Source of the DNA: Amanita rubescens
Lineage: Eukaryota > Basidiomycota > Agaricomycetes > Agaricales > Amanitaceae
Length of the DNA: 64,000 nucleotides
Reading direction: 5' to 3'
Assembly (NCBI GenBank): GCA_015039365.1
Contig: WION01000020.1
Coordinates: 62,001 to 126,000 of the forward strand
The translations under genes were made by a program, and so were the position numbers. Each line of letters starts with the position of its first letter. Positions within the stretch are counted from its first letter, which is position 1. Shown one piece after another: positions 19,631 to 49,215 of the stretch. Below the pieces are notes generated by a model. The model searched no databases. It had not been told where the DNA came from and was given only the letters and a program-made list of their open reading frames with translations.

Positions 19631-21047
19631 TTACGACGCCCTCCCGTTCGGTAATTGTTTCAGCTTAGCCCTCTTCTCCTTCAGCTTGGCTAGCGCGCTT
19701 TGTTTTGTTATTCCCCCTTCACGGGTCACACAGCTGGGGAATACCTGGCTTTGAGACGAAGATATAGAGGACATCGGGAAGGTATTATTGAAAGCGAGAC
19801 CTACCAATCCCACCAGTTCAACAAATCAGTAACCTCATTCTTCTCATCGGGATCATCTAAAAAGTCTGATACGCTCTCGTAGAATCGTTCCGAGTCCGTC
19901 GTGGTGTCGGACCTGCTAAAGACAGATGAAGATGACAAGGCGAAACGAAGCTGCTTGAACGATCAGCGCTAAGAGTTACAAGCTCAGACGTCTGACACAC
20001 CTGCGTAGCTATGTAGGCTAAAGAACCCGTCGTGACTCGAGTCATGCCATGGATACGAGCATTGCCCGATCTTGTCGCTTTGACTTCCTTCTCAACAGAA
20101 CTGGGCGAAGTAAAGATATGTTTGTAGGCCTACACACAAAGTAGTCGATAATCTCCCCAAAAAATAGAAGGGTACAAACCCAGACAAGAAGTTCACTTCT
20201 GAAGAGCCCGTCCCAGGGTTCTTCGGGGTCAAACTGCTGCTTTGCATACAGCATCAATGGCCATTGATCTCCCCGAACACCCAGTTCGCCGCTGGCAAGC
20301 TTTGTACGAGTTCTATGCAGCAGATTAGCGAAATACGGAAACACGTATAAGCGGGGAGAAAGTCACTGCGGATCATTCCAGTCTAGGCCAGCCGGGCAGA
20401 GGAGTGCCCCAGTGACGGGATGGTTAAAGCCGCGAGTTGTCTTGACACTACGAGAGAGTGGTGGATTCAATGGCATGTCTCGGGGGGTTATCCAGTCCAG
20501 TACGACCCCCTTCAGGCTTTTGGTATCATCCGACCTTGCGCTTGACATGCCTTTTTGAATCTAACGGAAAACGATTAGATTAAGCAACTCCTGATCTAAT
20601 AAGCGCACCAGATTCGCCATTATCTTGTATTCTTCGTCTGAACCGTCCACGATACGCTCTTCTAGTCGGGGTACTACTTCCAACAGTCGCAGATACACCT
20701 TGTACTCGTTTCGTTGCCTGTAATGGATGCGTGACGTCAAAGGTTGAGAAACCAACAACAAACTTAAATACGGACTGTGGTGTCAGCATTTCTTGTGTAA
20801 CTTCCCCGTTCTCGAAGACGAGTAGGCAGTTCGTTATCAACGCTTGGACATTACACATTGCATGCACAGTTCTGCCAAAGTGTCGTCCGTGATGAACGAA
20901 GGGATCACTTGTAGAGCTGGGATACCATTAGCACTGTGTGTAGCAGACGAAGTTTTGATAACCTCACGGCTTTTTCCTGTTTCCAAGCTTTAGCGCGTTG
21001 GCTGGGGCGCCGGTGCCAGCAGGAGGAACGTTTTCGTCCTCAGGCAT
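19631..21047 (-). CDS. DUF6698-type fungal protein, 8 exons, intact
   Basis: Minus-strand exons: 21047-20968, 20916-20764, 20717-20609, 20560-20367, 20312-20180, 20129-20001, 19950-19805, 19748-19631, giving 353 residues with no frame break. Seen: SDPFVHHGRHFGRTVHAMCN, LLEVVPRLEERIV, SSARSDDTKSLKGVVLDW, then GFNHPVTGALLCPAGLDWND, RGDQWPLMLYA, FRSELLVWAYKHIFTSPSS, GMTRVTTGSLAYIATQ, ERFYESVSDFLDD and a WWD/QVFP end. This order matches the DUF6698 family, which is expanded in Agaricomycetes and has no known function. The intron before the last exon uses a less standard acceptor (CAAAG). This is the best candidate parent of the family A repeats nearby. Confidence 0.75.
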
Positions 21048-21314
21048 TGGGGCGTGAGGGCGAGCCGATTGCGGAGGGGTATAACACTTTCTCTTGACTG
21101 ATCAGACTTGCCTTTGTATTGGCATGTGAGTCATATTCAGGGACGCCAGAAATGACTCGAGTCATTGTGGCTGGCCTAGGGGCGCGGAGATAAGAATCCG
21201 TCAGCCCACTAATTCCTGCCCATTCCTAGCGCAAAACGTCACCTCCATCCCTTAGCACCTCAGAATTCGTACACGTAGTGGTACGCGCTAGAGCTTACAC
21301 TGATCCGTTCCATC

Positions 21315-22269
21315 ATGCCTAAGAATCCCAAACCGCCGCCCTCCCCAACAAACTATTGTCCAAATCAACTGTTGCTGTTGGACGTCTACAAGTCGACTCG
21401 CGAGGGCCGCCTCATGTCCTATAACCCAGAAAATGGGGGCTTAGTCGTGCACCAGTGGCAAGTAACCTCCGTAATAAGCTAAGTTGGATTAACTTGCATT
21501 TTTTTCCATAGGCCTGTGAAGCCGGACGGTGAGCGTATTCCGCCGGAGGGATTGCGCCAGCATCGCGAAGCCCACGAGTACCTCGGGCCAGGATGCTTGT
21601 GTCCCCTGTTGGAGCCGCTTGGAGAAAAACTTGCATATAAAGAAACAGCGATTTACATAACCACGGACGGGAGGTACAAAGGAGAGCATGTCGCCGAATG
21701 TGCGGAGGACCGGTGCGGCTATCTAGGTTAGTGGTCTCAATTATTCTAATCGCTTGACGAAGCGAGAACCCATGCACTCCATCATTCAGTACCATTAGAA
21801 AGATTATACGCTAGACGTAGTCTCCCTGTGAAGACCTATCCCCTGCGAGGTTGGTTTCTAAGTTTCTCGATTCCGTATCAACTTACAAACTTGGCTGTAA
21901 GACACTGGCACGCCCTGCCCTCCACAAGTCTTCACCGAGAGGGAGGCGAGACCCGTAACAAAAAGACCATTGAAGAGAACCTATGCTCAAGCTAGTATGT
22001 CAAAACATTAATTCCTAACGTGAGCTGATCACGATGACTCATCACATGGAGTAGATGTACTGGAGCCACCTCCCCATGCTCCTGCGCTTCCGGAGGCGAA
22101 TTTGAGTCGCCGGACCGACTGGCGAAAAATGCAGAAGCTCGACAGCTTGGATAGGCCCGGGTTAACTGAAGAGCAATTCATGGGCTTGTTCGTCCAATGC
22201 GACGCATGTGGACTCATCACCATGCATCAGATATTTGACGACCATGAGTGTAGGTTGCACAGAACTTGA
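21315..22269 (+). CDS. Unnamed Cys/His-rich fungal protein, tandem paralogue 1, 5 exons
   Basis: Exons 21315-21457, 21512-21726, 21799-21849, 21902-21994 and 22025-22269 give 248 residues. The paralogue at 23309 has identical lengths for exons 2, 3 and 4, which supports the model. Conserved parts: MP(K/R)(N/K)PKP start, HEYLGPGCLCPLLEP, TDGRYKGEHVAECAEDRCGY, and a C-terminal LSRRTDWRKM, then GLTEEQFMGLFVQCDACGLI with later His and Cys (CDACG...H...HEC). The last part may bind zinc. Family unknown; function not inferable. Intron 1 starts with GCAAGT, a GC-AG intron, where the paralogue has GTAAGT. Confidence 0.7.
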
Positions 22270-23308
22270 AAATGACCAACCTTGGATAAACGAGGCACAG
22301 CGGCACATAAACTGTGATGCAGATTCGAGTTGTTTTGCTCTTCTTCACTAGCATCTGGCCATACTTCTAAAATGCTCTTATATTTCCAATCTTCCTAGAC
22401 TAGATGCCTCAATTTATGACTTCTCCAATTTGTGCGTAGGACAATAACTAAGCGTCGGCACAGAAATGAATCCTAATAAAAGACAAACTGAGACCGACTC
22501 ACCGGAATGAAGGTGACGTCTGCGCAGTCCACTTGACGATGTACGAAAGATGACACAAGAGTCTAACCCTTGGGAGCGACATAAGGTCTGGCTCCTGATA
22601 ATTTCTGTGTGGTGGTCTTGAGGGTTACATGTAATAAGACGGCGCATCCCGGGACTCGGATGCTTGGGGAAATATAAGCCCAATGAGAACCGAACCTAGG
22701 TTGGTGTCATGAATACAACGAATGTCAGAATAGCATTGTCGGTGCCACCTAGCTAGAACTAAGCTGTTCCGAAAGCATAGGCCAGGCGATCCCATATGAA
22801 AGGGCCTATTCTCCGTGCCATTCGCTATTCTGGCCAAATTGTAAGCCTTGGGAACGTTCAGGGGGCGTAATATCTTACTCAGTCGAAGTTTCAAGAGTTT
22901 CAATGAATTATTAGTTGCTGATCGTCATCGTATTGCATAAAAATTGTCAATGAGGTAGTTATGATCCTCGGTCTCCGAACTTCCTAATGCCAGAACTTGA
23001 ACGATTCCCAATAAAATTCCACTAATTATGCTTCAACATCAAAGGTTTAAGTTGAATGACTACATTCTCACAGTTCGAAGATGTGTATCCACCCTGCTGG
23101 CCCCACGCACTTGAACGACCGAGGCTGCCGCCGAGTCTCGGTGCATTTAGCTTTAAACTGCTTTCTGCTCAACGGTGACAGGGTCGCCACTGGCCCTGTG
23201 TGAGTCAGACATTCAGGAACGCCACTCAAGTGACTCATTCTGACTCTAACCATCAGTGACATCATCCCTGTGCTGAAGTTGAATACTTGAGCCTTATTCC
23301 ATCTCATC
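22270..23308. other. Spacer between the two paralogues with a family A scrap
   Basis: About 22545-22630 matches family A (AACCCTTGGGAGCGACATAA and GGTCTTGAGGG). The remainder shows no gene; the last 150 bp resemble the upstream region of the first paralogue, consistent with tandem duplication. Confidence 0.4.
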
Positions 23309-24293
23309 ATGCCTAGAAAACCCAAACCACTACCATTTTTGACCTTCCCAACCTACCGTCAAAAGTTATTATATGACGTCGACAAGTCGACTCACCGCGT
23401 CATGTCTTATGACCCGGCTAAACTGAAGCTAGTCGTGCACTATTGGTAAGTAACCATGGTATCTACAATATAGAATGATTAGCTGAACTAGCGATGTTTC
23501 CATAGGCCGCTCAAGCCTGATGGCGGGCGTGTACCACCAAACGAATTGTGCCAGTATCGCGAAACCCATGAGTACCTTGGGCCAGGTTGTTTATGTCCCT
23601 TGTTGGAACCGCGCAGGAAAAACACGGCATATAAGGAAGCTACAATATGCTTATCTATAGATGGTCGGTACAAAGGGGAGTACGTCGCCGAATGTGCCCA
23701 GGGCCAGTGCGGATATTCAGGTTGGCCACCATTTGCCTGACTCATTGACGAAGCGGGTACTGATGCCCCTCATTCAGTACCACTAGAAAGAGTATACCTA
23801 GGGGGGAAAATCAAAGCGAAGAGCTATCCGCTACGAGGTTAGTTTCTAACTTTCTCAATTCTACATCAATCTGGCACTCATCACGACCCTGGGTTACAAG
23901 GTGTCGGTATGCCATACCCTTCGCAAGTCAATATCGAAAAGGAGACGAGTTCTGTAACCAAAACGCGGTTGAAGAGAACTTATGCCCAAGCTGGTATGTA
24001 AAAGATGATCTTAAGAACATGGACATAATGCATGTACTTGAGCAGATTTAACGGACTCACCCCTTCCTGCCCCTGGGTTTGAAGGCGTGGATTTGAGTCG
24101 TCGAACTGACTGGCGGAAACTAACAAAGCTTGAATGTATAGAGAAACCCGGTTTGACTGAAGAGCAATTCTTGGGCTTGTTTATCAAGTGTGACGCGTGT
24201 GGGCTCATCACCACGCATCTGTTGTTCCACAAGCATCACTGTAGGCCGGATACGGTTGACGATTCTGGGTCAGAGCTATCTGACAAGGAGTGA
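23309..24293 (+). CDS. Unnamed Cys/His-rich fungal protein, tandem paralogue 2, 5 exons
   Basis: Exons 23309-23445, 23506-23720, 23787-23837, 23901-23993 and 24046-24293 give 247 residues. All five exons align with the copy at 21315, with exons 2-4 identical in length. Conserved: HYWPLKPDG, ETHEYLGPGCLCPLLEP, DGRYKGEYVAECAQGQCGY, LSRRTDWRKL, GLTEEQFLGLFIKCDACGLI, and a His/Cys-rich end (LLFHKHHC) followed by an acidic tail absent from copy 1. All introns here are GT-AG. No known domain; the spaced Cys/His may form a zinc site. Confidence 0.7.
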
Positions 24294-24399
24294 CAAAGCG
24301 CAGGTACCGTCGGCAGTAATGGTTTAATGAATACTTGCTCATAGTTAAGATGTTGCCACTTCAATTATTTCTAGACCACATACCTCAATAGATTAAGGG

Positions 24400-24874
24400 C
24401 ATTTATCTGATTTATGCGTGTAAACGCATCCAGAGTCCAGAGGGTAGTGACGGCGCCCGAGTAAATGCTGGGCACTAAGCACTGAACCTGGCTTTTTGAA
24501 GCAGAGGGAATCTGTGCGGCTACTTGGCGATGCACGTCTTCGGTTGAGAAAGGGTGACGCGAGAGCCTAGCCCATGGGAGCGACGTAAAGTCCGACTCTT
24601 GACAACTTCTGTGCGAATGATCTTGAGCACCATGAGAGGGTGTAACAATGAGAGTATGATGGCGGCACTGCTCGTGCCTGGCGGGCCAGACGATCGTCAG
24701 TTGAGCAGCTGAGTGGGGGCCTTTTCCACTGGGTTCGGAAATGGCGACATAAATAAAGATTGAACAGTAGGAGGAGAGGAAACCGTGGCTGAACGTTAGG
24801 TCTGGGATCGGAGCCGATGCCATGAAGATCGACCGGGACGAGGGAACCACGCGCTGCATTTAGTATTGGATGGA
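24400..24874 (-). repeat. Family A fragment
   Basis: 24520-24650 holds the family A words GGTTGAGAAAGGGTGACG and GAGCGACGTAAAGTC. The flanks are non-coding and unassigned. Confidence 0.45.
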
Positions 24875-27240
24875 ATACGATTTATTAACAAAGACGAGAG
24901 ATACAAGGGTATTAATATTTCAAAGCTGCCAACGCGAAGTACGTTGGCTACTGCGAGAGTGGCAGAGCTTGAGCGTGGCAGGGTGAGACCGTCATGTAAA
25001 TGGATGGTATGCACGACTTTCTATCGCGGAAACACAGGTCAAAACGATCGATTGGTGTGCAGGGCGGGAAACAAGACCTACGGGGGTAGAGCTCGATATG
25101 GCGATCAAAACGTAGGTCTGTGGGCCGCTTGGTTCGAGGTCATGGTTCAGTGACTTGAGAACGGAAAATGCGCGTCACCTTACCAGAAATGCCAGAATTA
25201 CTCACTCCGCAGAATGGGTGATGCGCAATCAAACCCGCCTGACGACTACGTTATAGAAAAGTCCACAACGCACGAGCTAAAGCAAGATCAACGCTAGTAT
25301 GTGCACATTGCGAGAGAAAGGTAAGGCGGGTGCCGTCACGCGTGATGTGCCTGCCAAATTGGGCGAGCGCGTTGGCCAACGTGAAGAACGTGGGGGAGAA
25401 CAAGACGATATTGTGACCGGCCGTATAGAGAAAAATGACAGAGGGACGCGTTGGGGAACTTTCTATCGCCGAAATACTGAATTAAGTCGATCGGTTAGCG
25501 TGCGAGGCATGAATTGAGAGAAATGGAGCACTTACGGGCCCGGTGATGGAAGGAACGGCACTGGATGCGTGTTTCGTGCATAGAAAGTTGAAGGATGATT
25601 GGAATGAAGAAAAAAGTGAGAAGCAAACCATAGAGGGGTCGCATGCGCCGAATAAGAGAGAATGTGCCGCTAGCATGGCAACAACGTCAGCAAGAAAGCG
25701 AACGACGTGGTATTAGGGCTGGACTTATTGAGAAGAATGCTTCCGAATTCCATTGAGCAACTTTCTATCGTGGAGATACATAATTAAAGGAATCGGTTAG
25801 CGTGCGAGACGCAAATTGAGAGAATGGAGCACTTATGGGCCTGGCGATAGAAGGAACGTCATTGAATGCATGTTTTGTGCATATAAATTTGAAGGATGCA
25901 TTGGAATGAAGAAAAAAATGCGAGAAGACGGTGGTAGAGGGGTCGTATGCGCCGAATAAGAGAGAACCCGCCGCCAACGCGCACAACGTTGGCAAGAAAG
26001 CGAACGATGCGGTATTAGGACCGGACGTATTGAAGGTAATGCTTCTGAATTACATTGAGCAACTTTCTATCGCAGTGATACAGAATTAGAGTGACCGGTC
26101 AGCTTGCGAGACGCAAATTTAGCAAAATGACGTACTCAAATCACTATGGACCGTTCCAGCCTGGACCAGCTGGGCCAAGAGTGCTGGTAACGGGGAAAGC
26201 TGCAATGACACTACGGGACAGCAGCCAATTCAAGGTAGTGCCTGGAAGACATCCAATTCAGGACGACCCAAATTCCAACACACCGCTCTTCCACCGGGTG
26301 GGCGTTAGGGGAGGACTCTATTAAACCGTTGGAAAGCGGATGTTGCCAAGTATCACGTTCATGTAGTCAAAATCGTAATGCTTCCGGAAAAGACCATATC
26401 CTTCACATGGAGACTTGAGGGTTCGCTGCTGCGGACGAGACGCACCGCTCGGCTTGGATGCATTCAGGGAGGACCTGTGAGAGTGCTGAAGAAAGAAGCG
26501 CTGGAGGCTCAGGTTCCATACTTCGATAGCGTTTTTGTAATCGCCGACGCTCCCGACGATTCCCCCGTTGTGCCAGAAGCAATCCACGTCGTCGTTATCC
26601 ACAACTGCAAGAACTTCAATGACGTGAGGAACTGTTCATAATAGCGAAATCTAACCTGTGGATGAACCAGTAAAAGAGTATGGACATCAGGTGTCACAAC
26701 AGCCTGAAGAACCGTTCATAAGCGATATAATAAGCGCATGGAATCTAACCTATGGATGAACCGTTGAAAGAGTAAGGTAGCCTGGCCAATCAGTAAACCA
26801 GCAAGACGGTACGCATGTTCAATTGAGAAAGGGCGACCCAAAAGTCTATCCCTTGGGAGCGACGCAACGTCTAACTCCTGTGGTTTCTGCGTGAGGATGA
26901 CATAAGAGGAAGGTGAAGAGAGGCAACGCCGGGTCCTGCCAAAAGGGGCGAATCTCTCTTGATCTCTCTTGAACTCTCTTAGGCTCTCTTAGGCTCTCTT
27001 TGGCTCTCTTTGTCTCTCTTTGTCTCTCCCCTGATTGAAATTCTATTTTGAGAATGGCCCAGGAAACAAGTCAGACTTTCAACGTAGGCAGCAGCCAGGA
27101 TGGCATGAACGACGTTGAGATACATGTTGAGTACTCGGGAAGTTTTTGACAAGCCTAGAGTGATCAGGCCGTTTTCAATACCATCGTATCTAATGCATAT
27201 CATCTTGCTTGTATCTATTACTTTGCTTTGCGTCATGATT
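24875..27240 (-). repeat. Family A repeat, copy 2 (first of a tandem pair)
   Basis: Starts near GATTTATTAACAAAGACGA and ends past the CT-rich 9-mer array at 26950-27030. Inside it, two direct sub-copies of about 300 bp (about 25440-25740 and 25745-26060) repeat GAGCAACTTTCTATCG, GCGTGCGAG, CACTTA(C/T)GGGCC and GCGCCGAATAAGAGAGAA. On the minus strand these blocks keep intron-like signals (GTAAGT, then GCTAACCGAT, then AG). Short ORFs are fragmentary and not conserved between copies. Near 25350 it contains CTGCCAAATTGGGCGA, shared with the gene at 50171. Confidence 0.65.
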
Positions 27241-34935: not shown

Positions 34936-35589
34936 GAAAGTTTTCACGTCATAACCTCGAAACGAGAGGCAGCCAAAAAGGCCAGCGAGAGGTTCCCTGC
35001 TCAGTTAGGTCCGCAACGTAGGCCACGTTTTAGACCGCCGCCGGTTCCGCCAACAGCTGCCCCACCTCCGACACCAGTTGAATCCGCCACACCGCCGCTT
35101 CCACAGACACCCCGTAGAAGCCTCCTGCCGATATTCTCTAGTGCACAGCTTCAGTCCCTCCTGTTTTCGAGCTCCGTACAGACAGACGAAGATAGCCAAT
35201 CACTCCCAGGATCCTTTCCGTCTTCATCTAGGCAATCTCCCGAACCTACTGATTTCCCGCCATATCAATCAACACAGCCGTCGCCTTTACCAGTTAATTT
35301 TGATTGCCCAAGAGAGCGGACGCCAAGCCTAAGCGACGAATCTACTGCTCCGTCCCTATCTGCACTAGTCAACGCACAAGAATCTTCGCCACTTCCATCG
35401 CTTACACCATCAGTTAAGTCGCTCCCGCCAAGCAGACCAAATACTCCGCCTCCGCCGCCAAGCAGACCGTCTACTTCGCCTCCGTCGCCAAGCAGACCAT
35501 CTACTCCGTCTCTGCCGCCAAGCAGACCGTCTACTCCGACACCACCGCCAAGCAGACCATCTACACCGCCACCGCCGCCACCTCCTATC
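34936..35589 (+). other. Open, Pro-rich N-terminal extension frame upstream of gag
   Basis: The gag frame stays open for 218 codons before the first ATG at 35590, back to a stop just before 34936. It codes Pro-rich sequence with repeated PPSRPSTP units. There is no ATG in it. A splice acceptor (CCTTAG) sits exactly at its start, and an ATGATTGCG followed by GTGAGT lies in the LTR at 34541-34555 in matching phase. However, that ATG is upstream of the TATA candidate, so use of this exon is uncertain. Confidence 0.4.
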
Positions 35590-37392
35590 ATGTCCGGCCA
35601 GCCGACTCATATGCCCATCCGCTCCAGCAAGGAGGCTCCGCGTTTCGACGGCGTGGCAACCAACTTAGATCGATATCTTGATGACGTAGAGCTTATATGC
35701 CTTAATCGCGAAAAATCCGACGAAATCGTTAAATGGGCGGTCTATTACACAGACGAAAAATCATCAGGGCTATGGAAAACTACACGCGATGCGCTAGCCG
35801 ATAAAACATCATGGGAAGCGTTTAAGACAGCCATTACCAAATTGTACCCCGAAGCGAAGCCTGAGAACCGCCACACCATAGCCGCGTTACAATCGATCAG
35901 CAGCACGTTCCAAGCTAAACATACCATGACGGGACCAGCGCTAGGCGAATTTCACCGAGAATTCTCTGAGACGGCTGGCTTCTTGGTCAATAAGAGCACA
36001 ATGACCCGACGCGAAGCGGGGCTTATGTTTATCTCTTCATTCCCTGGTGAATACCGATCCGATATCACTACCCGCCTCACTATCAAGCACCCCGACGTCC
36101 GCCCTGACGAAGGATATGAATTAGCCGATATATTCAATGCTGCGGAGTTTGTCATTTCCTCCCGCCCTGTCATCGCTTTAATGGCCGCGACTATGCCTCC
36201 TAGATCAGCTCCGACAACAACCACGCCTCCGCCACGCTCTGACGGACAGCGCTACGATCGGCCATGGTACGACTGCACCTTCTGCTGGGCCAACGGACAC
36301 ACTCTTAGATACTGCCCAACTCTGGAAGAATATATCCGATCTAACAAGTGCCGACGCAATGATGGACGAATACAGCTGCCCGATGGATCGGAACCGACAG
36401 GACCAGGGAGAGGTATGAAGGAGAAAATCGATCGATGGCACCAGATAGCTACCACTGGCAACCCTGCAACAGGAACTAACAGGACACCTCTTGGCGCCCC
36501 CGCACCTCCGACATCTGCATCGACCAACTTGCTAGAGGTCTTTGCTACAGAAGCCTCCGACGCCGCCGACATTTATACCGCCCGACAGACAACAGCCTTA
36601 CCTAGATCTAAGCAGACCGTTCCGCCCGTTCCGCCTGTTCCCGCCGCTACTTCCGCATCCGCCTCCACGTCTAAAGGCAAAGAGAAGGACACACCCGCGT
36701 TCAAATATCGCACACCCATCGACGACATTGCCGCCCCGAAACGCATCGTTGATCACCTACTCAGCCTTCCCGTCTCTATAACCGCCAAAGACATCCTAGC
36801 GCTATCGCCGTCCGTCCAGAAAGAGCTCCGCCAATTAGTAACCAATAAACGTGTCGATCCAGCCTCCGCCAATGAGGTAGAAGTTATCTCCGATGAAACC
36901 GAACCTGAGACACACGATGAGGCGGAAGTCCTTATGGCATCCACGAGGCCTATCGAATCGCTCCGCGCAGTTGATGGCATTTTCGACGGAAACGTGAAAT
37001 GCGAATGTGTTATCGACAACGGATCTCAGATCATCGTCATCAGAAAAGACAAATGGCAGCTCTCCGGCGCACAGTATGCTCCGACACGTAGAATCATGAT
37101 GGAAACAGCCAACAGCTCGTCCAGTTGGACTTTGGGTATCGCCAATCTCAGCATGACAGTAGGCGGAATAACGATCAGGGTACAGGCACACATAGTAGAA
37201 GACGCGCCGTATGAAGTCTTGCTCGGCCGACCATTCCATACGCTCCTATCCGCCATTACACGCGATTACACCGACGGAGGCCAAGATATTACCATCACAT
37301 GTCCAGAGACAAGAGCGACAGCAGTCCTGACCACGAGGCCACGCACCAACAAGAACCGCGCCTGTACCCATCATGTCAGCTTGGGTTTTTAG
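35590..37392 (+). CDS. gag: Gag with C-terminal aspartic protease
   Basis: 600 codons from the first ATG. The N-terminal capsid-like region has WAVYYTDEKSSGLWKTTRDA, then ASKLYPEA-like and HTIAALQSI helices. A CCHC zinc knuckle sits near residue 228 (CTFCWANGHTLRYC). A Ser/Pro-rich linker follows. The retropepsin-like domain is at about residues 455-575, with CVIDNGSQI (D-N-G in place of the usual D-S/T-G) and LLGRPF. The frame ends with the slippery heptamer GGGTTTT directly before the TAG at 37390-37392, so read-through into pol needs a -1 shift. The N-terminus may extend upstream into the Pro-rich open frame. Confidence 0.92.
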   Translation: MSGQPTHMPIRSSKEAPRFDGVATNLDRYLDDVELICLNREKSDEIVKWAVYYTDEKSSGLWKTTRDALADKTSWEAFKTAITKLYPEAKPENRHTIAALQSISSTFQAKHTMTGPALGEFHREFSETAGFLVNKSTMTRREAGLMFISSFPGEYRSDITTRLTIKHPDVRPDEGYELADIFNAAEFVISSRPVIALMAATMPPRSAPTTTTPPPRSDGQRYDRPWYDCTFCWANGHTLRYCPTLEEYIRSNKCRRNDGRIQLPDGSEPTGPGRGMKEKIDRWHQIATTGNPATGTNRTPLGAPAPPTSASTNLLEVFATEASDAADIYTARQTTALPRSKQTVPPVPPVPAATSASASTSKGKEKDTPAFKYRTPIDDIAAPKRIVDHLLSLPVSITAKDILALSPSVQKELRQLVTNKRVDPASANEVEVISDETEPETHDEAEVLMASTRPIESLRAVDGIFDGNVKCECVIDNGSQIIVIRKDKWQLSGAQYAPTRRIMMETANSSSSWTLGIANLSMTVGGITIRVQAHIVEDAPYEVLLGRPFHTLLSAITRDYTDGGQDITITCPETRATAVLTTRPRTNKNRACTHHVSLGF

Positions 37393-40300
37393 TAGTCGAT
37401 GAATCGCCTCCAAGACGACAAGACATTCCGCCACTACCGCCCGACCCGCCTCCCGACCCGACGACCTCCGACAATGTTCATACGAGCCCGACGACAGTAC
37501 ATACAGATATCAAGCACATATACGACACTAATAAAGAAACATTCGCTTCCGCTACAATCGCTACCCTTAATATTGAAGTCGACGACTACCATTCCTCCGC
37601 TTATCTAGCCGACACGCAGCACCTCCACGTTTATACTGTCGGAGCCGACAAGAACCCATACCAGCTCAGTGACGGACACTTTGGGGAAATGTTAACAGCT
37701 CCGAGGATGGTTGGTGACTCCCTAATTCCTTGCATCGGACATATAGCTACTACGTCTATCGAAATTAATTTTATCTCATCTGCTGAAATTCTCGCTGCGA
37801 GCAAGAAAGCATACAAAAAGGTGGCCAACCGAACTAAGCCTGTAGCCACTACGCTACCAGAAAAATTCCGCATTATCCGCCGCATTCCGTCCGATCCGCT
37901 AGCCGATTTACCCACGCTTCCGACACGCCCGCCCGCATTCACACCAGGAGAACGATACACCGAAGAGCGCATGAAACAGCAGAATATTAACCCAGACGGC
38001 TTTCTAACCGAAGAGGAAGAGAAGCTAATACACCACCTAATCCGAATTCATGAAGAAGGTTTCGCCTGGACGGAACAAGAGAAAGGAAAATTCAGTAACG
38101 ACTACTTCGATCCGGTCATCATTCCGACAATAGAACACGTGCCTTGGGTACTCAGAAATATTCCGATTCCGCCAGGAAAGTACAACGAGATCGTCAAAAT
38201 TATCAAAGATAAGATCGCTTCTGGTGTATACGAGCCGTCTAACTCTTCCTACCGCTCCAGATGGTTCTGCGTCTTCAAAAAAGATGGAAAATCCCTCCGC
38301 ATCGTCCACGACCTCCAGCCGCTTAACGCAGTCACTATCAAAGACGCCGCCCAGCCGCCAAACATTGAACTTTTAGCGGAATCATTCGGCGGATACTCAT
38401 GCTTCGGAATGTTCGATCTATTCGTCGGATTTGACCAGCGTCGCCTTGCGCCTGAGTCCCGGGACTTGACCACCTTCCAGACGCCCCTTGGCACGTTCCG
38501 CCTCACTTCCATACCGATGGGATATACGAACTCTATGCAAATCTTCCACGGTGACGTTACCTTCATTTTACAGGACGAAATCCCACACGTTACCAAGCCG
38601 TTTATCGACGATTGCCCCTGCAAAGGACCGAAAACACGTTACGAGTTACCCGACGGCACGTTTGAGACCATCCCCGATAACACCGGAATCCGCCGCTTCG
38701 TTTGGGAACACTTACAAAACATCAACAGGGTCATCCAACGCATTAAGCACGCCGGCGGAACCTTCTCAGGAAAGAAGTCCTTTTTCTGCACTCCCGAAGC
38801 GATAGTTCTAGGACACAAATGCACGTACGAAGGCCGCCTCCCCGACGACGATAGAGTCTCCAAAATAGCCAAGTGGCCGATCCCTCAAAACATCTCCGAC
38901 GTTCGCGGATTCTTAGGAACCATAGGGACTGTACGCATTTACCTCAAGGATTACACTCTGCACGCGCCATTGCTCACCGCCCTCCTCAAATGGAAGACCG
39001 CCTTCGAATTCACCGATCGCCACATCGAAGCTTTCAACAGTCTTAAGAAGCTCGCCGCCAATTGCTCCGCTATTCGCGCCCTCGACTACGAGTCAGAAAA
39101 CGAGTCTATTCTAGCAGTCGACACGTCCGCCCATGCTGTCGGATACTATCTCTCCCAAATAGGCGACGACGGAAACCGCTACCCTAACCGCTACGGATCT
39201 ATCACACTAAACGACCGAGAAGCACGATATTCGCAGGCCAAACTGGAACTTTACGGTTTATTCCGCGCCCTTCGGGAGGCCAAAATATTCATTATCGGAC
39301 TTAAGAACTTCGTCGTTGAGGTGGACGCGAAATACATTAAAGGAATGATCAATAACCCCGATATACAGCCTAACAACACGATCAATAGATGGATCGCTGG
39401 CATCCTCTTGTTTGATTTCCGCCTCCGACACGTGCCCGGTAAAGATCACACCCCAGCCGACGGGCTTTCTCGACGACGCCGCGCAAAAGACGACGATCCG
39501 CCCGATGACTCCGATCCCGACGACTGGATTGATGAAGCTAACGGATTCTGTATACAGGCGGCTAACTGGGACGTCCTACACAATAAGGCCTCTGCCTGGT
39601 CGACAACAACGGACTCCGACCCCTTCCCCCGCTCCGACAAACAGCTCTCCCGCGACGCCGAAATTTTCAAAATTCAGGAGTTCCTCGACAATCCGCTACG
39701 GCCGATAGATATGGATGAAGAACGATTCCGCCACTGGATGGGCAAAGTAAAGCGCTTCTTCGTCCAAGGTGATAGGCTCTGGCGCCGCGACAAACACCGC
39801 CGCCATAAGCTGGTAATACTAGACGACACGAAGAGGTTAGAGATTGTTCAGGAGGCCCACGACGATACAGGTCATAAAGGCATTTTTGCCACTAGCGCAC
39901 GAGTCCGCGACCGATTCTGGTGGCCATCGCTTGAGCCCGACATTAGATGGTACGTCCGCACCTGTCACGCATGCCAAATAAGAAATGTTCAGCGCTTCCA
40001 CATCCCGCCGACCGTGCCGGAGCCCGGAGGTCTCTTCCGCAATATCCACATAGACACTATGAAGATGCCCTCCTCCGGCGGTTACTCATATATCACGCAT
40101 GCCCGCTGCTCTCTATCAGCCTGGCCCGAGTATAGGATGCTCCGAAACGAGAAAGCCGAAGGAATCGCGAAGTTTATATTCGAAGACATCCTCTGCAGAC
40201 ATGGCGCCGTCGAATGCATAGTCACCGACAACGGAACACCTTATATTGCCGCCTTGGATATCCTCCGACAACGATACGGCATTAACCACATCAGGATCTC

Positions 40301-41069
40301 GCCGTATAACTCACAGGCTAACGGTATCATCGAGCGCCGACATCGTGGAGTTCGGGAGTCACTTGTTAAAGCGGCCGACGGACAGGAATCAAAATGGAGC
40401 CAAGTAGCAGCCTCCGTCTTCTGGGCAGAACGTATCACCGTACACCCGTCCACTGGTTACAGTCCCTTTTTCATTGCGCACGGAGTAGAACCGACTCTTC
40501 CGCTTGACATATCCCAGGCTACGTACCTATGTCCACCTATTAGCGCAGAGCTGACGACGGATGACCTTCTTGCATTTCGCGCCCGACAACTTCAGAAGCG
40601 ACCCGCCGACTTGGAACGCATTAAAGATGAAGTATATCAGTCACGTCTCAATGCGGTCCGCAAACTTGAATCGCGCTTCCGCCACACCATCCGATCCTTC
40701 CAATTCGATAAAGGAGACCTCGTTCTAGTCCGCAATAATAAGATCGACATGGAGCTCGACCGCAAGACCAAAACCCGCTACCTCGGACCAATGGTCGTCA
40801 TCAGAAAGACTCAGGGAGGATCATTTATACTCGCAGAAACCGACGGATCCCTTTCCAAGCTAAGATATGCAGCTAAGCGTTTAATCCCATACCACCCGCG
40901 TAGAATACAATCCGGTGAGAGACTTCTAAAATTAATTAATATGACAGACAGGGAGCTATATACGATGACACACGAGCCGCCTGATGAAACCCTCTCCGCT
41001 GACGGCGGAGATGGTGGTTTCGACGACGCAGAGCTCACAGATGACGGCTCCGACGCCGAAGAATGCTGA
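37299..41069 (+). CDS. pol: Pol polyprotein: reverse transcriptase, RNase H, integrase
   Basis: Open frame in -1 relation to gag, overlapping it by 94 nt. The ATG at 37299 is probably not used; translation should enter by frameshift near residue 30. The RT starts near residue 278 (HVPWVLRNIPIPPG) and has its catalytic FIDD near residue 433. RNase H is near 605 (LAVDTSAHAVGYYL). The integrase has the HHCC finger near 851-895 (AHDDTGH, CHAC) and the D,D-35-E core: D in HIDTMKMP, D in TDNGTPY (near 974) and E in GIIERRHRG (near 1010). No chromodomain was seen at the C-terminus. Length and order are normal for Ty3/gypsy and no lesion is visible. Confidence 0.95.
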   Translation: MSRDKSDSSPDHEATHQQEPRLYPSCQLGFLVVDESPPRRQDIPPLPPDPPPDPTTSDNVHTSPTTVHTDIKHIYDTNKETFASATIATLNIEVDDYHSSAYLADTQHLHVYTVGADKNPYQLSDGHFGEMLTAPRMVGDSLIPCIGHIATTSIEINFISSAEILAASKKAYKKVANRTKPVATTLPEKFRIIRRIPSDPLADLPTLPTRPPAFTPGERYTEERMKQQNINPDGFLTEEEEKLIHHLIRIHEEGFAWTEQEKGKFSNDYFDPVIIPTIEHVPWVLRNIPIPPGKYNEIVKIIKDKIASGVYEPSNSSYRSRWFCVFKKDGKSLRIVHDLQPLNAVTIKDAAQPPNIELLAESFGGYSCFGMFDLFVGFDQRRLAPESRDLTTFQTPLGTFRLTSIPMGYTNSMQIFHGDVTFILQDEIPHVTKPFIDDCPCKGPKTRYELPDGTFETIPDNTGIRRFVWEHLQNINRVIQRIKHAGGTFSGKKSFFCTPEAIVLGHKCTYEGRLPDDDRVSKIAKWPIPQNISDVRGFLGTIGTVRIYLKDYTLHAPLLTALLKWKTAFEFTDRHIEAFNSLKKLAANCSAIRALDYESENESILAVDTSAHAVGYYLSQIGDDGNRYPNRYGSITLNDREARYSQAKLELYGLFRALREAKIFIIGLKNFVVEVDAKYIKGMINNPDIQPNNTINRWIAGILLFDFRLRHVPGKDHTPADGLSRRRRAKDDDPPDDSDPDDWIDEANGFCIQAANWDVLHNKASAWSTTTDSDPFPRSDKQLSRDAEIFKIQEFLDNPLRPIDMDEERFRHWMGKVKRFFVQGDRLWRRDKHRRHKLVILDDTKRLEIVQEAHDDTGHKGIFATSARVRDRFWWPSLEPDIRWYVRTCHACQIRNVQRFHIPPTVPEPGGLFRNIHIDTMKMPSSGGYSYITHARCSLSAWPEYRMLRNEKAEGIAKFIFEDILCRHGAVECIVTDNGTPYIAALDILRQRYGINHIRISPYNSQANGIIERRHRGVRESLVKAADGQESKWSQVAASVFWAERITVHPSTGYSPFFIAHGVEPTLPLDISQATYLCPPISAELTTDDLLAFRARQLQKRPADLERIKDEVYQSRLNAVRKLESRFRHTIRSFQFDKGDLVLVRNNKIDMELDRKTKTRYLGPMVVIRKTQGGSFILAETDGSLSKLRYAAKRLIPYHPRRIQSGERLLKLINMTDRELYTMTHEPPDETLSADGGDGGFDDAELTDDGSDAEEC
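37383..37389 (+). promoter_or_regulatory. -1 ribosomal frameshift heptamer GGGTTTT
   Basis: In the gag frame it reads (TT)G GGT TTT TAG, exactly the X XXY YYZ pattern with the gag stop as the next codon. Slipping back one base continues as TTA GTA GTC into the pol frame. A short possible stem (GTCG...CGAC) lies just downstream. The position and phase are what a Gag-Pol frameshift needs. Confidence 0.8.
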
Positions 41070-45678: not shown

Positions 45679-48600
45679 CCTCCTGGGTACTTTTAATACT
45701 GACCTCCTGGTCAGGTCGGAGAGGTCGGATGGTGATAGAAAGTAGAAGGGAAGTGGTGGGTGGGTTCTTCTCATCTCGCTTTCTTCAATCGTGCAGGCGG
45801 TCAGGGCGGCGGTCGGAATTTCGGCGGAATCAGGTCTCGGAATGGCAGCTGTTGGGATGCCAGATGGCTCGGAAATGATAAAGACTTCGGCGATGGGGTC
45901 GCCGAGGGTTTCCGGGGTGGCAGAAATTGGCGTAGCAGTGGTGGGGTCATCAGGAGCCTCGGAGGTCTCGGCGGTATCATGCGTTGTAGTGGTAGGAGCG
46001 TCGGAGGGTCTGGAGGGTTCAGAGGGTTCGGAGGGGGTGGTATTAGGGAGCGTGGATTGATTAGGGATCGTGGTGCTAATGTGTATGTGCGTCGGAGTCG
46101 TATGTACGTTTTGCAGTTCTTCAGTATTGACAGGCTCGGCGGTATGCATTCCGGAGTGGTCTAGAGCTTCCAGGAAGTAGTTGGAGGACACAAATGGCTT
46201 CGGAGCGGTCGGCTGTGTGTACCTCAGCAGCCATACATCAATGCGTTCTTTGAACCATTGTCCGAAGTGGCGGTATTGGAATGCATTCGGTTCGTTGCCG
46301 TCCAAAAATTGAATCCGTCCATCGACTATTTTGATCTTCCCTTGCCTTGCGTATTCATCCCTGATATGGCAGCAGGCCGTCCGATGATTGATATCTCCGC
46401 AGAAAACGCATCCGCTAAGGAGATGGGTGGAAGCTGTGCTCGGAGGGGGAGTAGGGATAGGCGTCGGAAACGTCGGAAGCGTCGGAGCTTGTGGGGTGGT
46501 CGCGGCGAGCAAGGCTATAGCAGACCTTGAGCTTATAATGAATTGCGCAGCACTATTCATGTCCTTTAGATCATAGCCGTCATCGGGGTGGACGTCCGGG
46601 TACTTGATTGTGAGCCGAGTAGTGATATCGGGTCGGAGCTCGGGAGGGAATGCGGACATGTACATGATGCTTGCCTCACGGCGTGTCATGCGGTGCTTTC
46701 CGATGAGGTATTGAGCTGTTCCGGAAAATTCCCTGTGATACTCAGCAAGGGCAGTCTCGGATGTGACATTTTGCGCTGAGAAGCGGCCGGAAATGGCGTG
46801 TAGTGCTGCAATAGTGTGGCGGCGATCGGGCTGTGCCTCGGGGTAGATCTCGGAAATCACTTTCTTAAATGCATCCCAGGTTTTCGGATCCGATAGGGTG
46901 TCCCGAGCGGCTCTCCAGATCTCGGAAGATTTCTCCACCTGTTAAGCCGGCTAAATTAGCCTAATTAGCAGTGGACACCGATTGAGTGTCCAGAGCTAAT
47001 TAGCGAGGTTTAAGGGCCTACGGCACACTTTCAATAACTCTGATAAATATATAGAGAGATTTTGGTTAAGTCTTTTTTCCCACAACTAAATTACCATTTC
47101 TGGAAGGTGGGGGATATGTTTGTACATGTTATGAGATGGGAATGTGATCACAATTCAGAAACAAGGGATAATTGCCTTATTTGGTAAGGTAGCCAGATTC
47201 TAAATAAGGTAAGCAAGTCAGGATACCATTTTTGGAAGGGTGTGAGGGTGTTTGTACATGTTATGGCACAATTTCCTTTTTTGGAAAAGTGTCAAACTTC
47301 CAAATAAGGCACAAAATGGGTCATTCAGGGTCGAATTTCCTAAAAAGGAAATGATTACGTAATCTCAGGGTCAATCAATTGTGTAGCCTTGGTCAGTGGC
47401 TTTCTAAATGTGGTTGTATGACAATGTTTGGTGCTGATTTCATTGAGATATTCACTGATTGATTTTCAGGGTCAAATTTCTAAAAAAGGAAATTGATAAT
47501 GTAATGTGCGCTTTAGGATCCAGTGGCGGGTTTCCAAAAATGGAAATAGCGCACTTCGGACTTGCCATTTTGGGAAATATCTGCTCACTGTTGCTGGTGA
47601 TGAGCAGAAAGAAATTGCAATAACTCCCTTAATACTGAATGTTTTTGTGGCGCGTTTTTTGGAACATCTTCCTTATATGTATATGCACCTATCCACTATG
47701 TTAGAATGCAAAAAGAGCGACTGGTTTCTGTCAGAATGCAACATGTCTTGCTCACTGTTGACAACAGTGAGGAGCAACAAATGACAATATCTCCATCAAT
47801 ACTGGTTATTTGTGTGGCGCTTTTTTTGGTATGTCCCCATTAGGGATATAGGAAGGTGTTTGGCATGTCAGAATACAAATAGTACATACCAATCATGCCA
47901 CAAATGAAATTGGTGTGCTCACTGTCTGCCATGATGAGCAGCCATATCTCCACCAAAACAAGATCTTCCTGTGGCTGGGGACATACCAAAAAAAGCGCCA
48001 CACAAATAACCAGTATTGATGGAGATATGGCTGCTCATCATGGCAGACAGTGAGCACACCAATTTCATTTGTGGCATGATTGGTACGTACTATTTGTATT
48101 CTGACATGCCAAACACCTTCCTATATCCCTAATGGGGACATACCAAAAAAAGCGCCACACAAATAACCAGTATTGATGGAGATATTGTCATTTGTTGCTC
48201 CTCACTGTTGTCAACAGTGAGCAAGACATGTTGCATTCTGACAGAAACCAGTCGCTCTTTTTGCATTCTAACATAGTGGATAGGTGCATATACATATAAG
48301 GAAGATGTTCCAAAAAACGCGCCACAAAAACATTCAGTATTAAGGGAGTTATTGCAATTTCTTTCTGCTCATCACCAGCAACAGTGAGCAGATATTTCCC
48401 AAAATGGCAAGTCCGAAGTGCGCTATTTCCATTTTTGGAAACCCGCCACTGGATCCTAAAGCGCACATTACATTATCAATTTCCTTTTTTAGAAATTTGA
48501 CCCTGAAAATCAATCAGTGAATATCTCAATGAAATCAGCACCAAACATTGTCATACAACCACATTTAGAAAGCCACTGACCAAGGCTACACAATTGATTG

Positions 48601-49215
48601 ACCCTGAGATTACGTAATCATTTCCTTTTTAGGAAATTCGACCCTGAATGACCCATTTTGTGCCTTATTTGGAAGTTTGACACTTTTCCAAAAAAGGAAA
48701 TTGTGCCATAACATGTACAAACACCCTCACACCCTTCCAAAAATGGTATCCTGACTTGCTTACCTTATTTAGAATCTGGCTACCTTACCAAATAAGGCAA
48801 TTATCCCTTGTTTCTGAATTGTGATCACATTCCCATCTCATAACATGTACAAACATATCCCCCACCTTCCAGAAATGGTAATTTAGTTGTGGGAAAAAAG
48901 ACTTAACCAAAATCTCTCTATATATTTATCAGAGTTATTGAAAGTGTGCCGTAGGCCCTTAAACCTCGCTAATTAGCTCTGGACACTCAATCGGTGTCCA
49001 CTGCTAATTAGGCTAATTTAGCCGGCTTAACAGGTGGATTTCTCATCGGTATAGTAGACGGCCCATTTGATCAGTTCAGCATCTCCGGAGCGTTGTCTAT
49101 CCTCGCAGATCATCTCGATATCTTCGAGGTATCTCTCAAGACCAGCGGCAGTGCCTCGGAAGCAGGGTGCCTCCTTGTTCGTTCGGATGGGCATGCGGCG
49201 GTTTGGTTCGGTCAT
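45583..49215 (-). pseudogene. gag: Gag of the gag-only element, split by a transposon
   Basis: The 5' part starts at ATG 49215 (MTEPNRRMPIRTNKEAP) and runs to 49037. The 3' part runs from 46927 to the stop at 45583. Leaving out the insertion and one copy of its 8-bp target duplication gives exactly 508 codons in one frame, with the WAVYYTDEKSSEIW junction matching the other gag (WAVYYTDEKSSGLW). A CCHC knuckle is present (CVFCGDINHRTACC). No protease follows; the C-terminal third is Thr/Pro/Ser-rich. The frame was open when the insertion came, so the split is recent. Confidence 0.88.
46936..49036. mobile_element. 2.1-kb near-perfect palindromic (foldback) DNA transposon
   Basis: Ends are CACCTGTTAAGCCGGC and its reverse complement. 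The 8-bp target duplication GATTTCTC lies at 46928-46935 and 49037-49044. Two arms of about 1.0 kb are almost perfect inverted repeats around a spacer of about 60 bp (about 47955-48015). There is no transposase: two identical 92-codon ORFs (47506 and 48188) only reflect the palindrome. Internal blocks (CAGGGTCAAATTTCTAAAAA, GTGCGCTTTAGGATCC) are shared with the element at 9.6-15.2 kb. The 8-bp duplication fits hAT- or KDZ-type transposases; the superfamily cannot be fixed from the ends. Confidence 0.9.

What the first reader, a model, noticed from the sequence alone, without database searches (positions are those of the whole stretch)
46928..49044. Near-perfect 2.1-kb palindromic transposon with a clean 8-bp target duplication
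Arms of about 1 kb are inverted copies around a spacer of about 60 bp, ends are CACCTGTTAAGCCGGC, and GATTTCTC is duplicated on both sides. Removing the element restores an exact in-frame gag junction, so borders are known to the base. It encodes nothing, so a transposase in trans must recognise these ends. A foldback element with arms this long and an 8-bp duplication is unusual, and I know of no named family with these termini.
Basis: partly seen in the sequence, partly recalled or inferred. Interest (0 to 1): 0.85.

Follow-up and report, generated by a model that had tools for sequence, protein, structure and literature searches.

The report
Palindromic jumping gene moved by KDZ
A 2.1-kb piece of probably mushroom-type fungal DNA that is almost its own mirror image turns out to be a gene-less passenger of the KDZ group of jumping genes; its two mirror halves stay nearly identical to each other while ends and middle have been exchanged among its relatives.

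Summary
Confirmed and identified. The element is 46936..49036 (2,101 bp), flanked by GATTTCTC on both sides; the outer 950 bp of the arms are perfectly complementary. It is no artefact: of 29 distinct sites of short related elements examined, 23 have an exact 8-bp TSD, and 14 of 14 empty host sites compared overlap by exactly 8 bp. The transposase source was found: of eight 8.5-12.9-kb elements with the same ends, 7 hold KDZ (Kyakuja-Dileera-Zisupton) transposase matches, against hAT 1 and MULE 0. So it is a non-autonomous foldback element of the KDZ superfamily.

Relatives share a palindromic core but bear different terminal modules, mirrored on both sides; two end types match KDZ-bearing elements, two have no proven partner. 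Chimeric copies record the exchange. Drosophila Galileo behaves alike (PMC2775673, PMC3573991, passages), but belongs to the P superfamily; I found no KDZ foldback in the held papers searched.

The parts
46928..46935 (.). left copy of the 8-bp target site duplication GATTTCTC
   Evidence: sequence; empty sites overlap by exactly 8 bp in 14 of 14 host-repeat copies compared
49037..49044 (.). right copy of the target site duplication
46936..49036 (.). non-autonomous palindromic (foldback) transposon of the KDZ superfamily, 2,101 bp
46936..46951 (+). left terminal motif CACCTGTTAAGCCGGC, shared with KDZ-bearing elements
49021..49036 (-). right terminal motif, inverted copy
46960..47004 (.). left subterminal dyad (type I, GGACAC...GTGTCC within CTAATTAGC...GCTAATTAG); probable transposase binding site (inference)
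48968..49012 (.). right subterminal dyad, mirror of the left
   Evidence: mirror position of the left one
46936..47885 (+). outer 950 bp of the left arm, perfectly complementary to 48087..49036
48087..49036 (-). outer 950 bp of the right arm
46936..47335 (+). left terminal module (about 400 bp), the part that differs most between subfamilies; boundary approximate
48637..49036 (-). right terminal module, mirror of the left
47336..47975 (+). left half of the shared core, with three imperfect repeats about 167 bp apart (26-bp motif at 47582, 47749, 47916)
47976..48028 (.). centre: extra 53-bp copy of an arm repeat standing where related copies hold a 248-bp asymmetric spacer; looks like a template-switch scar (inference)

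Best explanation
A non-autonomous foldback transposon mobilised in trans by KDZ transposases. SHOWN: termini, subterminal dyad and 8-bp TSD are shared with 8.5-12.9-kb elements that hold KDZ transposase matches; the palindrome has no coding capacity; the window copy and a copy on contig C18 have no difference over both 1,045-bp arms yet sit in different TSDs, so movement was recent. SHOWN: the two arms of a copy resemble each other far more than arms of other copies, while the asymmetric spacer is inherited; ends and cores reassort between subfamilies. INFERRED: the transposase binds the subterminal dyad and cuts at CACCTG by cut-and-paste; arm-to-arm gene conversion keeps the arms alike; recombination between copies, in one case probably after insertion of one element into the end of another, makes chimeras with new ends, and conversion then makes them symmetrical again.
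For: KDZ link: of 8 pairs of exact CACCTGTTAAGCCG ends 8.5-12.9 kb apart, 7 contain PF18758 matches; if 126 matches fell at random, P of 7 or more of 8 is about 6e-12. One of them (contig C157) has PF18758 at E 2.6e-45 and PF18802 CxC1. Of those 7, 4 have an exact 8-bp TSD. Controls: hAT PF05699 lies in 1 of 8 spans (139 matches), MULE PF10551 in 0 of 8 (5 matches). TSD: 23 of 29 short-element sites. Subterminal dyad: 82.2% of 360 cells paired against 25.6-39.4% when slid; 7 pairs changed on both sides. Concerted arms: 181 of 196 variable columns concordant in 15 copies. Mosaic ends mirrored on both sides. Spacer conserved 244 of 248 between subfamilies that differ at 63 of 922 outer-arm positions.
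Against: No transposition was observed. Similarity to KDZ-bearing elements is confined to the outer 75-120 bp, at 75-83%. No KDZ-bearing copy was shown to be intact, and six further frames of at least 150 aa of the C77 element have no Pfam match. 6 of 29 short-element sites and 3 of 7 KDZ-bearing elements lack an exact abutting 8-bp TSD. Two end types (III, IV) have no proven autonomous partner. One hAT match lies in one long element. In the dyad, the two innermost pairs are unpaired in 10-11 of 18 sequences, and 'further pair types' is reached by 76 of 500 shuffles. The chimera C34/C693 moved without having its arms made equal, so conversion is not part of every transposition.
Confidence: 0.88

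Rival explanations
1. The palindrome is moved by a hAT (or other 8-bp-TSD) transposase, and the shared ends with KDZ elements are coincidence or KDZ genes are cargo.
For: hAT elements commonly make 8-bp TSDs; 139 hAT dimerisation-domain matches exist in the genome, one inside one of the long elements.
Against: hAT in 1 of 8 and MULE in 0 of 8 long elements with these ends, KDZ in 7 of 8. C. neoformans KDZ1 (about 11 kb, CxC1 plus KDZ, 8-bp TSD; PMC12810828, passages) has the same build.
Confidence: 0.04
2. Arms are alike because each palindrome was made anew by snap-back copying of one arm, not because arms convert each other.
For: Template switching does occur: the centre of the window copy carries an extra copy of an arm repeat.
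Against: Subfamilies with different outer arms share the same asymmetric 248-bp spacer (244 of 248, and 223 of 248 with C153b), which snap-back should replace. Concordant differences are spread along the arm. A chimera with unequal core arms moved and stayed unequal.
Confidence: 0.1
3. Assembly artefact: a read or contig folded back on itself.
For: Long palindromes are prone to it.
Against: Different unique flanks on the two sides with exact 8-bp TSDs in 23 of 29 sites, empty sites at 14 of 14 compared, recurring inherited arm differences.
Confidence: 0.01
4. A simple internal-deletion derivative (MITE) of one KDZ element whose long TIRs it inherited.
For: Outer 75-120 bp resemble KDZ elements.
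Against: The TIR of the KDZ element on C504 is 149 bp, and the remaining roughly 900 bp of the palindrome arm show no match to the parts of KDZ elements held here (C504 whole; about 9-10 kb each of C157 and C77; end pieces of C13 elements). Other KDZ elements were not read whole.
Confidence: 0.1

Closest known systems
KDZ elements of fungi (C. neoformans KDZ1-3, PMC12810828, passages seen; superfamily naming after Iyer et al. 2014, recalled and as cited in PMC12730594)
   Same: about 9-11 kb autonomous elements with KDZ plus CxC1 and 8-bp TSD match the long partners here
   Different: The element itself has no transposase and arms of about 1 kb instead of TIRs of 139-241 bp; that paper saw no mobilisation of clearly non-autonomous copies
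Galileo (P superfamily, Drosophila; PMC2775673 and PMC3573991, passages seen)
   Same: Long internally repetitive TIRs up to 1.2 kb, arms >99% identical within and about 7% different between copies, chimeric copies, copies with ends of one subfamily and centre of another
   Different: 7-bp TSD with consensus GTAGTAC, P-type transposase, insect host. Its two-TIR chimeras in D. mojavensis lack matching TSDs, whereas C34, C693 and C168a here have exact 8-bp TSDs
Foldback/Tetris (PMC4079207, passages seen)
   Same: Non-coding foldback element with repeats inside the arms, 8-10-bp TSD
   Different: Its authors suggest Mutator; no partner transposase was found there
Non-autonomous DNA elements of Marasmius oreades (PMC8290104, PMC9674265, passages seen)
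   Same: Agaricomycete, KDZ TIR motifs described (in a supplementary figure I did not see), non-autonomous elements classified by TIR and TSD
   Different: No palindromic KDZ derivative in the passages seen

Membership tests
KDZ superfamily (as non-autonomous member) | 8-bp TSD | tested here: met
   23 of 29 short-element sites exact
KDZ superfamily (as non-autonomous member) | Termini shared with elements that encode a KDZ transposase | tested here: met
   7 of 8 long elements with the same exact 14-bp ends hold PF18758 matches
KDZ superfamily (as non-autonomous member) | Own KDZ transposase | tested here: not met
   Longest internal ATG frame 52 aa; defines it as non-autonomous, not as outside the superfamily
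KDZ superfamily (as non-autonomous member) | Cut and joined by KDZ transposase | not testable with these tools
   needs an excision or binding assay
hAT | hAT transposase in elements with the same ends | tested here: not met
   1 of 8 long elements has a PF05699 match, with two stops inside
MULE/Mutator | MULE transposase in elements with the same ends; TSD of about 9 bp (recalled) | tested here: not met
   0 of 8 (5 matches in the genome); TSD is 8 bp
P superfamily (Galileo) | 7-bp TSD near GTAGTAC | tested here: not met
   8-bp TSDs of varied sequence
P superfamily (Galileo) | P-type transposase in partner elements | not tested
   no search with a P/THAP family was made
Foldback architecture (class by structure) | Very long inverted arms with internal repeats and little else | tested here: met
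   arms over 1 kb, three repeats about 167 bp apart in each

The most novel reading that the evidence does not exclude
The palindrome is an end-swapping device: because its arms are copies, a new terminal module acquired on one side by recombination or nested insertion can be copied to the other side, so a gene-less core can change from one transposase lineage to another and stay mobile. Cores T and V occur with end types I, Ib, II, III and IV in the combinations seen, and C168a holds a type-I end stacked outside a fossil type-IV end. The order of events (one end first, then copied) is not shown.
Probability: 0.35. Interest if true: 0.72.

Novelty: new variant of a known kind. Interest (0 to 1): 0.5.

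Why it matters
It gives the little-studied KDZ superfamily a non-autonomous, very long-armed derivative with base-exact borders, an identified partner group and a candidate binding site (the covarying subterminal dyad). It shows Galileo-like dynamics (concerted arms, chimeras, exchange of ends and centres) in an unrelated superfamily, which argues that long arms as such, not one transposase, drive this behaviour. Recent, identical copies make the partner hypothesis directly testable.

Tried and rejected
Rejected: assembly fold; hAT or MULE as mover; a protein hidden in the arms (nothing over 52 aa wholly inside); Rfam RNAs anywhere in the window (0 at gathering scores). I first read the C153-type TSD as 9 bp; the computed value is 8. 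I first took C168a as a copied end; the alignment shows a type-I end of about 80 bp outside a fossil type-IV end, better explained by nested insertion followed by deletion between homologous cores (inference). I first took C34/C693 as a snapshot of end copying; C451 (type III ends, V core in both arms) makes exchange between elements the simpler reading. C2:349636-361061 was at first a possible autonomous element; it has no KDZ match and shares its flanks with C359 and C629b, so it is the same insertion, enlarged.

Led nowhere: the right end of the C95 type-III candidate was not found in 20600-25300; an autonomous partner for type IV was not found (8 exact matches, which are the ends of four palindromes). 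The host species was not identified; the named proteins among the hits are all from mushroom-forming fungi. The Iyer 2014 paper by the DOI I recalled is not held; supplements were not available.

Full report
WHAT IS THERE. The window holds a 2,101-bp element at 46936..49036, with GATTTCTC at 46928-46935 and 49037-49044. The outer 950 bp of its arms are perfectly complementary; mismatches begin at arm position 951. It has no ATG frame over 52 aa wholly inside and the window has no Rfam match at gathering scores. The window lies on contig C113 of a 75.7-Mb unnamed assembly of 786 contigs. The closest named relatives of its KDZ proteins are from mushroom-forming fungi, so the host is probably an agaricomycete (inference).

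IT IS A REAL, RECENT INSERTION. Searching each flank separately, I compared coordinates for 14 copies of the host repeat that hold both flanks; in 14 of 14 the flank matches overlap by exactly 8 bases, which is the undisturbed target (40 copies were scored in each search). The arm used as a query gives 51 matches in the genome, a lower bound since 40 of 255 candidates were scored. The copy on C18 has no difference from the window copy over both 1,045-bp arms, including the same unusual centre, but a different TSD, GATCGTAA.

TSD CENSUS. Among 29 distinct sites of short elements (under 5 kb) that I examined, 23 have exactly 8 bp duplicated next to the ends: 16 of 18; C153 type, C321, C157b and C693 but not C359; C167/C640, C451 and C629a but not C65, C86b and C495. 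Copies with the same flanks on several contigs were counted once (four of the C153 type; C167 with C640; C359 with C2 and C629b). For C167/C640, C629a and C495 only the ends were read, so their palindromic form is assumed.

THE TRANSPOSASE. The exact 14-mer CACCTGTTAAGCCG occurs 80 times, the reversed control 0 times. Eight pairs in opposite orientation lie 8.5-12.9 kb apart. Seven of the eight contain matches to PF18758, the KDZ transposase family (126 matches in the genome). With matches placed at random, 7 or more of 8 has P about 6e-12. The C157 element shows PF18758 at E 2.6e-45 and the KDZ-associated PF18802 (CxC1). Controls: hAT PF05699, 139 matches, one of them inside one of the eight, on C13 (150 of 175 candidates scored); MULE PF10551, 5 matches, none inside. 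Exact 8-bp TSDs flank 4 of the 7 KDZ-bearing elements (C157, C504 twice, C77); C704 differs at one base by eye; the two C13 elements have none abutting. Size, domains and TSD agree with C. neoformans KDZ1, about 11 kb, 241-bp TIRs, 8-bp TSD, CxC1 plus KDZ (PMC12810828, passages). Against: no KDZ-bearing copy was shown intact, and six further frames of the C77 element have no Pfam match at 0.01.

THE ENDS. All short and long elements compared begin with CACCTG or CACCTA and carry, at positions 25-69, a nested dyad. On 18 ends, 82.2% of 360 cells pair, against 25.6-39.4% when slid; seven pairs change on both sides; 0 of 500 shuffles reach the paired percentage, 1 of 500 the seven pairs, but 76 of 500 the number of pair types, and the two innermost pairs are unpaired in 10-11 of 18. 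The dyad thus keeps its symmetry while its sequence changes: GGACAC..GTGTCC (I), GGGACACAGG..CCTGTGTCCC (II), GGTGACTCA..TGAGTCACC (III), GGACAG..CTGTCTCC, less regular (IV). Type I is on the KDZ elements of C77 and C13a, type II on those of C157, C704, C504 (two) and C13b. Their KDZ fragments are 85% identical within type I and 70-73% between types I and II. Type III has only a candidate partner on C95, whose right end I could not find; type IV has none. That the dyad is the transposase binding site is inference.

THE ARMS EVOLVE TOGETHER. In 15 copies of two subfamilies, 196 columns vary within the first 900 bp; at 181 of them both arms agree in every copy. Of the 15 others, 7 come from one indel of C245 at the block end. 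Mean arm-to-arm difference within a copy is 1.0, between copies 82.7 (same call; within the T1 set without C289 it is 1.4 against 10.5). Hence changes that arise in one arm reach the other. Remaining arm differences pile up next to the spacer: 34 of 1,396 positions in the inner 100 bp against 15 of 13,228 in the outer 945 (14 copies, C18 dropped as a duplicate of C113; 10 of the 15 are in C289). Some inner differences may simply mark the end of the arms. The 248-bp asymmetric spacer is shared between subfamilies (244 of 248; 223 of 248 with C153b), so the palindromes were not remade from single arms; conversion between arms is the better reading.

ENDS AND CORES REASSORT. Profiles of one subfamily against another are mosaic and mirrored: C780b against C146a is 62-85% over the outer 400 bp and 94-100% over the inner 1,500 bp, then 67-85% again; C780b against C157b has an unrelated stretch at 300-600 on both sides. 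Core T occurs with ends I, Ib and II, core V with IV and III. C34 and C693 carry type-III ends alike in both arms over nearly 400 bp, then a V core in one arm and a T core in the other; both have exact 8-bp TSDs, so the chimera moved. C451 has type-III ends and V core in both arms. C168a, also with an exact TSD, has a T left arm and a V right arm, on which a type-I end of about 80 bp stands outside a recognisable type-IV end. I read this as an element inserted into the end of another, followed by deletion between the homologous cores (inference).

COMPARISON. Galileo copies have TIRs over 99% identical within and about 7% different between copies, chimeras from ectopic recombination, and copies with ends of one and centre of another subfamily (PMC2775673, PMC3573991, passages). 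The behaviour is therefore known; the superfamily, TSD and host differ. Searches for KDZ or Zisupton with non-autonomous, MITE, foldback or palindromic terms gave no KDZ foldback in the listings and passages I saw. M. oreades KDZ TIR motifs are in a supplement I did not see (PMC8290104), and Repbase was not searched, so a family with these ends may already have a name there.

VERDICT. A non-autonomous foldback member of the KDZ superfamily: a new variant of a known kind. The partner assignment is strong by sequence; the end-swapping idea is the boldest reading that the data allow.

Noticed in passing
G000 C77:89407-89425 and C86:12416-12435 (L049, L052): Two elements with these ends lie only 17-18 bp apart, on two contigs; perhaps new insertions favour the neighbourhood of existing ends.
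   Followed up: no
G000 C504:42497 and C504:103443 (L017, L018): Left and right halves of a window-type palindrome lie about 61 kb apart but share the flank atatggca, as if the spacer had taken in about 59 kb, including one KDZ element.
   Followed up: no
G000 C86:44185 left flank and C495:98722 right flank: The same 8 bp, cgcttttc, stand on the outer side of two different copies without own TSD, as expected after ectopic recombination between copies.
   Followed up: no
L070 (C321:161700-166850): The right arm of a palindrome holds an insertion of about 2.4 kb with ends resembling GTGGGGGAGGGTAAAG inverted and what looks like a 9-bp duplication, a different transposon.
   Followed up: no
window 34936..41069 (+): Ty3-like retrotransposon frames: aspartyl protease, DUF4100, reverse transcriptase (below cut-off), RNase H and integrase zinc-binding matches.
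   Followed up: no
G000, several contigs: Some insertions with identical flanks recur on two to four contigs, pointing to segmental duplication or unmerged haplotypes in the assembly.
   Followed up: partly
G000: 126 matches to the KDZ transposase profile; by position most lie outside the elements with the CACCTGTTAAGCCG ends, so other KDZ lineages with other ends exist here.
   Followed up: no
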